From Methanothermococcus okinawensis (GTDB taxonomy: Archaea > AGJL01 > Methanococci > Methanococcales > Methanococcaceae): a DNA stretch of 47,837 bases. The position numbers and the translations under genes are program-made. Positions 10,873 to 15,631 of the stretch are shown one piece after another; positions within the stretch are counted from its first letter, which is position 1, and every line of letters starts with the position of its first letter. The notes under the pieces are model-generated. The model was not told the origin of the DNA. It saw only the letters and a program-made list of their open reading frames with translations, and did not search any database. The stretch covers positions 1-47,837 of the forward strand of contig DQUI01000087.1 in NCBI GenBank assembly GCA_015662355.1, read 5' to 3'.

Positions 10873-11544
10873 ATGGAGGAACTTCTAAAGAGGATATATG
10901 AAGCTCTAAATAGAGAGGATATATATAATCTAGAGCTATCCAAGATATTCCCCTATATTGAGAACAGTAAGTTTAGGGAGTACTACTCCCTTCTCTCCAC
11001 TTTATGTAGTAAAAAGGTAGTGATGCACTGTCTGGCAGTATCCCTCTACACCTATGAAGTTGGTTTAAAATTAAAGAACAGAGGTCATAACATAGATCTA
11101 GATCTGGCAGTATTTGGTGCCCTCCTCCACGACATAGGGAGAAGTAGAACTCACACTATAAAACATGGTGTAGAAGGGGCAAAAATAGTGAGAGAGCACA
11201 ACTTAGACGAGAGGCTGGCCTTGATAGTGGAGAGACATATTGGAGGGGGGATAACAAAAAAGGAGGCAGCTGAGTTAGGACTACCTCCAAGGGACTATAT
11301 CCCTAGAACACTGGAGGAGAAACTTGTAGCCCACTGTGACAATTTAACAAGTGGTACAAAGAGGGTAGATATAAACTTTGTAGTGGAAAAATATAAGGGA
11401 AAACTTAGTTGTGATAGTATAGATCACCCTGTAATAACTAGGATTGTAAAACTGAATAATGAGATTATTTCCCTGTTACTGGAAGAGGATACCAGTCATG
11501 TTCAGGGCTACGTAGAAGGCCAACATACCAAAGGTCATACATAG
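10873..11544 (+). CDS. HD-domain phosphohydrolase (TIGR00295-like)
   Basis: VFGALLHDIGRSRTHTIKHGVEGAKIVREH; HD residues present. Confidence 0.82.
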   Translation: MEELLKRIYEALNREDIYNLELSKIFPYIENSKFREYYSLLSTLCSKKVVMHCLAVSLYTYEVGLKLKNRGHNIDLDLAVFGALLHDIGRSRTHTIKHGVEGAKIVREHNLDERLALIVERHIGGGITKKEAAELGLPPRDYIPRTLEEKLVAHCDNLTSGTKRVDINFVVEKYKGKLSCDSIDHPVITRIVKLNNEIISLLLEEDTSHVQGYVEGQHTKGHT

Positions 11545-12366
11545 GGCGCAACCTATTACCATCCTACTAGCCTTCAAACCAAACAGTGGGACTGTAAACA
11601 ACAGACCAAAGATTCCAGTACCTATCTGGACAACCTCCATACACTTGGCAATCTCTTCTGGTTTTACAGGGGGTGCATTAGGTACTAAACTTGAAACGAT
11701 ATCTAAATAACCTCCAATAATACCTGCAGTTGCAGGAACTACTCCACAGAGTATTACTAGCCCTACTGCAAGACCGTTTGCAGTAACACTTAACAACTGT
11801 GACCTTAGGTTTTGTAGGTCCTCTAAGGTTTTTGCAAGGGTCCTTAAGGTTTCTGCCAACTCCCCTCCATACTTCCTCGTCTCAATAAGGAGTCTTCCAA
11901 CTAACTTGAATATATAGGAATCCATACTGTTTGCAACTATATACACTGCCTCCTCGAAACTCATCTTCCTCTCCTTGATAAGGAGAATAATTTTTAAGAA
12001 AACTTTATCCACCTCCTTAATACCACTGTCAACAACCTCCTGAATTGCATCAACTATGGAACGCCCTGACTCCAGGGAGAGTACCATAACATAGAGGGCC
12101 TTAGGGAGGTTACGCTCAAACTCCTCTATCTTCAACTCGTATATTACTTTGGGAATCATAAGGACTGAGAGGACATACACGACAATCAGTAAGGTAACAC
12201 TTCTTATATTAAGATGGACTACATACTTGAAGACTATAGGAATAATAACAGCCAGTAGTATTATCATTAAATACTTGTTTTCATCTATATTTTTAAATCC
12301 TGCCTTTCTAAGTAAGATTATGTTGGATTTTATAATATGTTGTAATATCTCTCTGATATCTGCCAT
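11476..12366 (-). CDS. type II secretion/FlaJ-TadC-like integral membrane protein
   Basis: Multiple hydrophobic helices; LESGRSIVDAIQEVVDSG..RKMSFEEAVYIVA; adjacent to a second T2SF-like protein and a secretion ATPase. Confidence 0.8.
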   Translation of the reverse strand: MADIREILQHIIKSNIILLRKAGFKNIDENKYLMIILLAVIIPIVFKYVVHLNIRSVTLLIVVYVLSVLMIPKVIYELKIEEFERNLPKALYVMVLSLESGRSIVDAIQEVVDSGIKEVDKVFLKIILLIKERKMSFEEAVYIVANSMDSYIFKLVGRLLIETRKYGGELAETLRTLAKTLEDLQNLRSQLLSVTANGLAVGLVILCGVVPATAGIIGGYLDIVSSLVPNAPPVKPEEIAKCMEVVQIGTGIFGLLFTVPLFGLKASRMVIGCALCMTFGMLAFYVALNMTGILFQ

Positions 12367-12370
12367 AGTC

Positions 12371-13426
12371 TCACTCGATCTTGAATTTTACAAAGAGTGC
12401 AAAGACTAGAGCTAAGACAGGTGCTATCTTTGTAAGTACTAAATCTAAGGTGTTGATTACACCGGTGAGTCCAGTATTTCCCTGGATAGAGGACAACATC
12501 ATCCCTGAGAAGGGGAGTATTACACCTACTCCAAATACTAGGTTACCTAGGTTAGTTATCTGGAATTTCGAGGACTCTATCTTGGACATAGACTCTCTCA
12601 GTATCTCCTTGTACAGGTTTCTCAGAAGTAGTTGCGCCCCTCCCTTATTTAGAGAGATAAGTAGTTGAGTGTATAGTTTTTTCATCAGGGGTATCTTTGT
12701 CCTCTTCCTTGCCCTTTCAAGGGCCTCTTTTAAACTGTAACCTCTCTCTATATCTTTGACAATACTTCTAAACTCGAAGGATGGAATACCAAACTCTGGA
12801 CTTTCTGCTATGTTTTTAATAGCCTCCTGGAGAGACATTCCAGCATTTAAAAGAGCTATCATAGTTAACAGTGCTACAAGTATCTGCATCTTTATCTCGC
12901 CACGGAATAACAACAGCTTTATCTTTGGATAGAATATCCCTAGGATGAACACTACAATACTTGCTATTATACCACTTACAATAGCCATAGGAGGGTTATC
13001 CAGGAGGTATAAGAAGTATGCTATCCCCACAAGGATGGAGAATACAGTTAACTTCAGAAAGTACTTGTTAATATCCTTAATACCAGCATATTGGAAATCT
13101 ACCTTAGAGGGTAAGAACTTAGTACGTATTACCTGATAGGATATCTCCTTAGTGTATTTTTTAAGGACCTCTACCTCTATATCTTCCATTATCTTGTCAA
13201 TGTCCACCTCTGTCTCCAATTTTCTCCTATCTAATACACCTTCAGTTCCTTCATAGACTTCGTAAAACTCTAGTAGCTCATCTCTAACTTCATCATAGAT
13301 AGTAGGTACTTTTTCACTAACTGTGGAAATTTTTTTTCTTCTTCTCCTTCGCCCTCTTATGAGGTATACTATCTCATCTAAAAAATCTGTTATACTTGAA
13401 AAAAATTTTCTCAATGTCTCTACCAT
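12371..13426 (-). CDS. type II secretion F/TadB-like integral membrane protein
   Basis: LLNAGMSLQEAIKNIAESPEFG..DIERGYSLKEALERARKRTKIP; C-terminal TM helices; operon context. Confidence 0.8.
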   Translation of the reverse strand: MVETLRKFFSSITDFLDEIVYLIRGRRRRRKKISTVSEKVPTIYDEVRDELLEFYEVYEGTEGVLDRRKLETEVDIDKIMEDIEVEVLKKYTKEISYQVIRTKFLPSKVDFQYAGIKDINKYFLKLTVFSILVGIAYFLYLLDNPPMAIVSGIIASIVVFILGIFYPKIKLLLFRGEIKMQILVALLTMIALLNAGMSLQEAIKNIAESPEFGIPSFEFRSIVKDIERGYSLKEALERARKRTKIPLMKKLYTQLLISLNKGGAQLLLRNLYKEILRESMSKIESSKFQITNLGNLVFGVGVILPFSGMMLSSIQGNTGLTGVINTLDLVLTKIAPVLALVFALFVKFKIE

Positions 13427-13453: not shown

Positions 13454-15631
13454 TTACCCCCTAATACTCATAAGTAGTCCCTCAGGATTCTCCTGATATC
13501 TCATTATCAGTTCTCCAACTCTCTTTATATCCCTTATGTTGTTCTTGTATGCATACTTTAATACCTCTATTCTATTTTTTCTATCCTCCAGTAGTTCCTC
13601 CCTTGTTATACCTGCAATATTACAGACCTCCTCCTCCCACATACAGATACCTACTTTCTTTAGGGCATCCTCTGTACCGTCGTATTTAAAGAGAGTTGTT
13701 TTTGATATCTCTCCAGCGGAACCTATAATCTCTATAACCTCTAGTATTCTCCTAATGGTCTTTCTATTTCTTTTTATCCTCTGCTGATTTATAATAAAGT
13801 CTAGGGAGGAGAGCATAATCTTAGGGACGTTCATCGGCGGGTTTATCAACCTAGTTATAGCCTCACTTGCACTGTTTGCGTGGAGAGTTCCAGAACAGTT
13901 AGATACTACAATACCCCCATTACTTCCCCCTATATAGGTGTGATTATCCACAACTGTTAAATCGTATATGTAGCCATTGTACGTTACCTCTTCAATGGAG
14001 ACTACTACGTCCCAGGAGATATCTAGAGAGGGGTATACACTTTCTACTACTACCTCCCCATCTGTGGTGGAGGTAGTTATTAACTTCCTGTAGTTCCCAG
14101 GGATAGCTATGTAGTCCCCAACCTTCAGGGAGTAGGGGTTAATTTCAAAGATAATCCCCCTTAGTACGTAAAGGGGATGGTCGTAGGTAAGGGTTATCTC
14201 TCTACCAGTTGCAGTCTTTAATTTTAAAAGTTTTCCAGTGTATCTCTTTCTCCAGACGTGGGATATTAACTTATCTTCAATTTTTAAGGATTTCTTGTTA
14301 AAACTGTTGATGTATATACCCTCTTCACTTATATCTATCCATTCAAATCCGTTATCCTCCTTAACTGTCCTATATCCCCTCTGGAAGAACTTGTCTACAA
14401 AGTTTCCTATATTTACAACTCTTCCCCTAGATAAATATATAGGTTCATCATTCACTAGGGCACCGTCGTGACCTGTGTTCATGGCGACTAGGAGAGAACG
14501 GGCCTCCTCCCCCCTTACCTCTCCTACAAATATCCTATCAGGTCTCATCCTCAGGGCGTTTTTAATTAAATCGTCCATGGTGATCTCGTAGTCAGGGACT
14601 CCAGGTCTCGGTGGCCTAGTTACCATTCTAATTACGTGATCGTGGGGTATCTGAAGTTCTGGAGTATCCTCTATAGTAACTATTCTATCGGTATACATGG
14701 AGAACATAGATATTACATTTAAGGTGGTAGTTTTACCAGAACCTGTACCTCCTACAATTAAGGTGTTAGCAGGTTTAGATCCGAAGTAACCTTCAACAGC
14801 CTGCCATAGGAAGGCTGCAAATTCAAAGCTAAATGTACCAAACCTTATAAGATCTATTACAGTCAAAGGATCCTTGGAGAACTTACGAATAGTTAAAGTG
14901 TTTCCATCTGGTGTAACCTCCTTTAAGGTAGCATTTACCCTACTACCGTCAGGTAAAAATGCATCTAGCATCGGGGTCCTAGCGTCTATGGTCCTCCCTG
15001 CAAGTAGTGCTATACTCTCTATAATCCTTGTTAACTCCTCCTCATCGAAGACAATATTGGACCTACACATCTGATACTTCCTGTGGAATACGTAGGTAGG
15101 TCTGTACTCTCCGTTAACCATTACCTCCTCTAGCCTGTCGTCCTTAAGGGGTATTTCCAAAAACCCTAATCTACCAAGAATTAGATAGAAGTACTTTGCC
15201 AAACTTTGTATTTCAGGCTTTTTAAGGTTTAAATTGTTTTTCTCTACGTAGTCCTGTAAAAACCTGTATATCTCCCCAACCTTTTCAAATCCCTCCTCAG
15301 AGAGGATAGATTTTATCTCCTGAACAGTGTCTTTAGGTAACTTAGAGAGTATACTCATTATTACATCTACTTCAGGTACTATGTACAGTGTTCGTCCCTC
15401 TTTTTTTCCAATAACTATGTCAAAATCTACTTCTTCCACCTGCACAGTGTATGTATCTAGAACGTTAGATAAATTTAAGTTATTACTAACTACTTTATTA
15501 GAGGTAGTAGGTTTTTTAGAGGGAGTTGTAATATTGGTGGAAACACTCTCTCTGTCTTCTTTTAAAGTGTCACTCTTTTTAATGGAAATTCCAGCTTTAT
15601 TCTTCTTTTTAATTCTATCTAATAACCCCAT
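13454..15631 (-). CDS. klbA: KlbA/CpaF-type type II/IV secretion ATPase, interrupted by an in-frame intein
   Basis: Walker A LIVGGTGSGKTTTLNVIS; RMRPDRIFVGEVRGEEARSLLVAMNTGHDG | intein | CSGTLHANSASEAITRL. Confidence 0.95.
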   Translation of the reverse strand: MGLLDRIKKKNKAGISIKKSDTLKEDRESVSTNITTPSKKPTTSNKVVSNNLNLSNVLDTYTVQVEEVDFDIVIGKKEGRTLYIVPEVDVIMSILSKLPKDTVQEIKSILSEEGFEKVGEIYRFLQDYVEKNNLNLKKPEIQSLAKYFYLILGRLGFLEIPLKDDRLEEVMVNGEYRPTYVFHRKYQMCRSNIVFDEEELTRIIESIALLAGRTIDARTPMLDAFLPDGSRVNATLKEVTPDGNTLTIRKFSKDPLTVIDLIRFGTFSFEFAAFLWQAVEGYFGSKPANTLIVGGTGSGKTTTLNVISMFSMYTDRIVTIEDTPELQIPHDHVIRMVTRPPRPGVPDYEITMDDLIKNALRMRPDRIFVGEVRGEEARSLLVAMNTGHDGALVNDEPIYLSRGRVVNIGNFVDKFFQRGYRTVKEDNGFEWIDISEEGIYINSFNKKSLKIEDKLISHVWRKRYTGKLLKLKTATGREITLTYDHPLYVLRGIIFEINPYSLKVGDYIAIPGNYRKLITTSTTDGEVVVESVYPSLDISWDVVVSIEEVTYNGYIYDLTVVDNHTYIGGSNGGIVVSNCSGTLHANSASEAITRLINPPMNVPKIMLSSLDFIINQQRIKRNRKTIRRILEVIEIIGSAGEISKTTLFKYDGTEDALKKVGICMWEEEVCNIAGITREELLEDRKNRIEVLKYAYKNNIRDIKRVGELIMRYQENPEGLLMSIRG
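13898..14461 (-). other. Mini-intein in KlbA ATPase (188 aa, Ala1, no endonuclease domain)
   Basis: Insertion between TGHDG and CSGTLHAN; starts ALVNDEPIYLSRG; block B-like GREITLTYDHPLYVL; C-terminal blocks NGYIYDLTVVDNHTYIGGSNGGIVVSN followed by Cys+1; exactly 564 nt. Confidence 0.95.

What the first reader, a model, noticed from the sequence alone, without database searches (positions are those of the whole stretch)
13898..14461. 188-aa Ala1 mini-intein in the KlbA secretion ATPase
The ATPase is split at TGHDG|CSGTLHAN by a 188-aa in-frame element beginning ALVNDEPIYL and ending VVSN before Cys+1. There is no room for a homing endonuclease. Ala at position 1 means the usual N-terminal Cys/Ser thioester cannot form. 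Known biology: the Methanocaldococcus jannaschii KlbA intein is the reference for this alternative splicing mechanism, with direct attack by Cys+1. The residue before the terminal Asn is Ser rather than the canonical His, and there is an extra segment (about YRKLITTSTTDGEVVVESVYPSLDIS) before the C-terminal blocks. It may be a useful new thermostable member for protein engineering.
Basis: partly seen in the sequence, partly recalled or inferred. Interest (0 to 1): 0.72.

Follow-up and report, generated by a model that had tools for sequence, protein, structure and literature searches.

The report
Class 2 KlbA mini-intein, methanogen archaeon
A pilus/secretion ATPase gene of a Methanothermococcus-like archaeon carries a self-removing protein insert (a KlbA intein that starts with alanine and has lost its DNA-cutting part); this is a new but ordinary member of an already known class, and its one odd segment looks like a decaying leftover loop.

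Summary
Window 14461-13898 (minus strand) encodes a 188-aa in-frame Hint-domain intein, ALVNDE...VVSN, splitting a 725-aa T2SSE ATPase at TGHDG|CSGTLHAN. It is an ortholog of the Methanocaldococcus jannaschii KlbA intein: best PDB match by sequence (2jmz, E=5.6e-54) and by fold (RMSD 1.6 A, 54% identity), at the same insertion site. All class 2 residues are present: Ala1, Thr B:7, His B:10, Asp F:4, Ser G:6, Asn G:7, Cys+1. The 'unusual' Ser before the terminal Asn is a defining class 2 trait, invariant in all 22 KlbA inteins I recovered. Thirteen related genomes have the precise empty site. The 'extra segment' lies exactly at the homing-endonuclease insertion point. It is the only low-confidence part of the AlphaFold model and evolves near neutrality (dN/dS about 0.5-1.4), while the splicing domain is strongly conserved (0.07-0.15). 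Relatives form a size series from 451 aa (LAGLIDADG plus HTH) through 262-232 aa (HTH only, or neither) to 188-199 and 166-172 aa. The window's genome has no match to that LAGLIDADG family, so the intein appears immobile and vertically inherited. Splicing chemistry and thermostability remain untested. New member of a known kind; low surprise.

The parts
13454..15631 (-). KlbA (MJ0781-type) T2SSE-family secretion/pilus ATPase precursor, 725 aa; predicted spliced product 537 aa
   Evidence: Pfam T2SSE 6.5e-39
14462..15631 (-). N-extein, 390 aa, ending ...AMNTGHDG
13898..14461 (-). 188-aa class 2 KlbA mini-intein (no Cys in the intein itself)
14459..14461 (-). Ala1 (no N-terminal nucleophile)
   Evidence: invariant in 22
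14177..14188 (-). Block B T92-x-x-H95 (Thr B:7, His B:10)
   Evidence: invariant in 22
14024..14098 (-). Extra segment, intein residues 122-146: relic loop at the homing-endonuclease insertion point
13961..13963 (-). Asp167 (block F:4)
   Evidence: invariant in 22
13940..13942 (-). His174 (block F:13)
   Evidence: invariant in 22
13898..13903 (-). Ser187-Asn188 (block G:6, G:7)
   Evidence: invariant in 22
13895..13897 (-). Cys+1, attacking nucleophile; also present in intein-free orthologs
13457..13897 (-). C-extein, 147 aa, starting CSGTLHAN (stop codon at 13454-13456)
12371..13426 (-). Downstream T2SSF membrane protein, likely same operon
   Evidence: Pfam T2SSF 2.9e-16
11476..12366 (-). 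Second downstream T2SSF membrane protein
   Evidence: Pfam T2SSF 4.3e-12

Best explanation
The segment is a class 2 (Ala1) KlbA mini-intein, orthologous to the M. jannaschii KlbA intein. Inferred mechanism: Cys+1 directly attacks the Gly(-1)-Ala1 peptide bond, helped by Thr92/His95 (block B) and Asp167 (block F). This gives the branched thioester; Asn188 then cyclises and the acyl shift yields a continuous 537-aa ATPase with ...TGHDGCSGTLHAN.... The element probably descends from a mobile intein with a LAGLIDADG plus HTH endonuclease region, which was lost before the six-genome window clade diverged. The roughly 25-residue extra segment is what remains at that site and is now a nearly unconstrained loop. 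Shown: sequence, insertion site, catalytic residues, predicted fold, empty site in relatives, selection pattern, the size series. Inferred: the splicing chemistry and the direction from large to small.
For: PDB sequence match 2jmz/2jnq E=5.6e-54, 2.5e-78 with the family profile. AlphaFold model mean pLDDT 87.3, with residues 125-144 as the only low-confidence stretch; best PDB fold 2jmz, E=7.8e-16, RMSD 1.6 A, 54% identity. Class 2 residues invariant in 22 inteins, matching the published definition (PMC4031507). Empty sites in 13 genomes. Splicing-domain dN/dS 0.07-0.15 against 0.5-1.4 for the extra segment. G033 carries LAGLIDADG_3 (2.6e-18) and HTH_3 (4.9e-11) at the same loop. The endonuclease of PI-PkoII lies at the equivalent point, query residue about 123. 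The window intein falls in the same six-genome clade in the intein and extein trees. No LAGLIDADG_3 match in the window's genome.
Against: No splicing data. The extra segment has no detectable sequence similarity to the G033 endonuclease, so its relic status rests on position, the size series and neutrality. The segment is only 25-34 codons, so each dN/dS estimate is wide (5-95% intervals from about 0.2 to 4). The direction of size change is not rooted.
Confidence: 0.95

Rival explanations
1. The extra segment is a functional thermophilic loop that fixes the two Hint subdomains, as a linker or degenerate endonuclease at this site is reported to do in MjaTFIIB, rather than inert leftover.
For: A linker at this site is needed for MjaTFIIB splicing and a loop extension stabilises a CDC21-1 intein (PMC6801210). 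All six window-clade genomes keep a loop of similar size (188-197 aa inteins).
Against: Its sequence is near-neutral and its length varies; no confident structure; Methanocaldococcus-type orthologs at 166-172 aa lack it.
Confidence: 0.2
2. The intein is a decayed, non-splicing element and the ATPase is not functional in this strain.
For: No splicing data; fragmentary assembly of 90 contigs.
Against: Open frame, all catalytic residues kept, and purifying selection on both intein and extein.
Confidence: 0.03
3. It is a class 3 or standard class 1 intein, or a non-intein Hint (BIL-like) domain.
For: General Hint fold matches to class 1 inteins and a BIL domain.
Against: Position F:4 is Asp, not the Cys that defines class 3; residue 1 is Ala; Asn G:7 and Cys+1 are present; the closest relative is the class 2 reference.
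Confidence: 0.01

Closest known systems
Methanocaldococcus jannaschii KlbA intein (MJ0781; PDB 2JMZ, 2JNQ), class 2 reference
   Same: Same host gene, same insertion site, Ala1, Ser G:6, Asn G:7, Cys+1, block B/F residues, fold, no endonuclease
   Different: 188 aa instead of 168; about 22 residues more at the endonuclease-site loop; about 61% identity to the 168-aa ortholog in G004
KlbA inteins of other Methanothermococcus-group genomes (L001-L003 and G028, G022; 189-197 aa)
   Same: 71-77% identity, same loop type, same clade in both trees
   Different: Loop length and sequence
Long KlbA intein of genome G033 (451 aa, LAGLIDADG plus HTH)
   Same: Orthologous splicing domain with Ala1 and SN|C
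   Different: Carries an endonuclease region that the window intein lacks

Membership tests
Class 2 (KlbA) intein | Ala at position 1 | tested here: met
Class 2 (KlbA) intein | Ser at G:6 and Asn at G:7 | tested here: met
   definition PMC4031507
Class 2 (KlbA) intein | Cys at +1 | tested here: met
Class 2 (KlbA) intein | Thr B:7, His B:10, Asp F:4 | tested here: met
   T92, H95, D167 invariant in 22
Class 2 (KlbA) intein | Ortholog of Mja KlbA intein at the same site | tested here: met
Class 2 (KlbA) intein | Splicing by direct attack of Cys+1 on the N-terminal junction | not testable with these tools
   needs biochemistry
Mini-intein | Hint domain without endonuclease | tested here: met
Class 3 intein | Cys at F:4 (WCT motif) | tested here: not met
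   F:4 is Asp167 and the intein has no Cys
Class 1 intein | Cys/Ser/Thr at position 1 | tested here: not met
   Ala1

The most novel reading that the evidence does not exclude
The endonuclease-less KlbA intein, vertically kept under strong purifying selection in the window clade, has become a temperature- or condition-dependent switch for pilus/secretion ATPase assembly, with the retained loop tuning it.
Probability: 0.05. Interest if true: 0.6.

Novelty: new member of a known kind. Interest (0 to 1): 0.2.

Why it matters
It adds a member from a thermophile group to a small intein class with one well-studied reference protein. The 22 orthologs give a graded series of endonuclease loss at a single site, which makes it testable whether the loop left behind matters for splicing. 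The intein has no internal cysteine, which is convenient for engineering.

Tried and rejected
Segment as a native ATPase domain: rejected, 13 genomes have the empty site. Class 1, class 3 and BIL: rejected on residues. Viral origin: a viral-contig scan gave no relative; plasmids gave one remote intein-like hit, 29% identity, under an SNF2-related protein of Arthrobacter. Direct sequence homology of the extra segment to the endonuclease of G033: nothing recognisable in the alignment. Search beyond Methanococci: the phylum search returned the same 36 genomes, so Thermococcales KlbA inteins were not compared. Primary KlbA papers (PMC2206692, PMC314217) are not held. The first AlphaFold model with 9 sequences was weak (pLDDT 70); the 22-sequence model replaced it.

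Full report
Observation. The ORF at 13454-15631 on the minus strand encodes 725 aa. Residues 391-578 form the 188-aa insert exactly as described, between ...AMNTGHDG and CSGTLHAN.... The host protein matches T2SSE (6.5e-39) and the insert matches Intein_splicing (1.3e-22), plus the NCBIfam intein N- and C-terminal models above cut-off. Two T2SSF genes follow downstream, so the gene sits in a secretion/type IV pilus-type operon. The name KlbA rests on orthology with MJ0781; the more specific NCBIfam ATPase models were below cut-off.

Identity. The best solved relative is the M. jannaschii KlbA intein precursor 2jmz/2jnq, E=5.6e-54 by sequence and 2.5e-78 with the family profile. An AlphaFold model from 22 orthologs has mean pLDDT 87.3 and its best PDB match is again 2jmz, RMSD 1.6 A, 54% identity.

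Comparative set. Of 36 Methanococci genomes, 22 carry the intein at this site and 13 have the uninterrupted site TGHDGCSGTLHAN; the KlbA ATPase was not found in G011. Named relatives are Methanothermococcus. All 22 inteins have Ala1, end in SN and are followed by Cys+1. Thr92, His95, Asp167, His174, Ser187 and Asn188 are invariant. A review states that all class 2 inteins known then are KlbA orthologs with Ala1 and Ser G:6, and that Thr B:7, His B:10 and Asp F:4 are required (PMC4031507). Penultimate Ser is therefore a class trait, not an anomaly. The attacking Cys+1 is a normal residue of intein-free orthologs too.

The extra segment. Against Mja KlbA the additional residues fall between window residues 123 and 148. 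In the same phmmer output the two halves of the PI-PkoII intein, which flank its endonuclease, align to window residues 15-123 and 120-179, so the endonuclease lies at the same point. In G033 this point holds a LAGLIDADG_3 domain and an HTH_3 domain. G024 (262 aa) keeps the HTH only; G034 and G035 (262 aa) keep a weak HTH-like insert (E=8.7e-6 for G035); G029 (235) and G030 (265) match neither, and G031 (265) and G026 (232) align with inserts lacking both motifs. The window clade is 188-197 aa, G001 199, and the other seven orthologs of its genus 166-172. In the window clade the splicing domain has dN/dS 0.07-0.15 in the pairs bootstrapped, comparable in constraint to the extein, whereas residues 122-146 have 0.55-1.45. 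The same stretch is the only part the AlphaFold model cannot place (125-144). A decaying relic loop is the simplest reading; a stabilising loop with free sequence but needed length, by analogy to MjaTFIIB (PMC6801210), is not excluded.

History. The six short-loop genomes form the same clade in intein and extein trees, so the endonuclease region was probably lost before they diverged and the intein has since been inherited vertically. The window's genome has no LAGLIDADG_3 match, so that family cannot mobilise it in trans. Elsewhere in the group transfer is likely: the inteins of G001 and G033 are 77% identical while their exteins are 62% identical.

Mechanism (inferred from the reference protein): direct attack of Cys+1 on the Gly-Ala1 bond, branched intermediate, Asn188 cyclisation, acyl shift, giving a 537-aa ATPase. 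None of these steps was observed here.

Verdict. It is a new member of a known kind with no exceptional feature.

Noticed in passing
L024 520-1872 (G033:C1): A 451-aa KlbA intein with Ala1 that carries both LAGLIDADG_3 and an XRE-type HTH domain: a probably mobile class 2 intein.
   Followed up: partly
L026 2668-3453 and L028 1147-1932 (G035, G034): 262-aa KlbA inteins with no LAGLIDADG match but an HTH-like insert that is under strong purifying selection between the two genomes (dN/dS 0.07, 5-95% 0.04-0.16), unlike the neutral loop of the window clade. The function of a conserved endonuclease-less insert is unexplained.
   Followed up: partly
L020 and L021 (G031, G030): 265-aa KlbA inteins whose insert is Asn/Tyr/Ser-rich low-complexity sequence with weak constraint (dN/dS about 0.68).
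   Followed up: partly
L012 and L024 (G001, G033): Inteins more alike (77%) than their host proteins (62%), suggesting transfer between genera.
   Followed up: partly
L006 (G000:C41:3218-4057): Second intein of the window's genome, a Cys1 class 1 type in the DNA polymerase II large subunit, ending HQ before Cys+1.
   Followed up: no
G018:C1:1057422-1075172: Four KlbA gene copies with identical match scores, 5405 bases apart: tandem amplification or assembly artefact.
   Followed up: no
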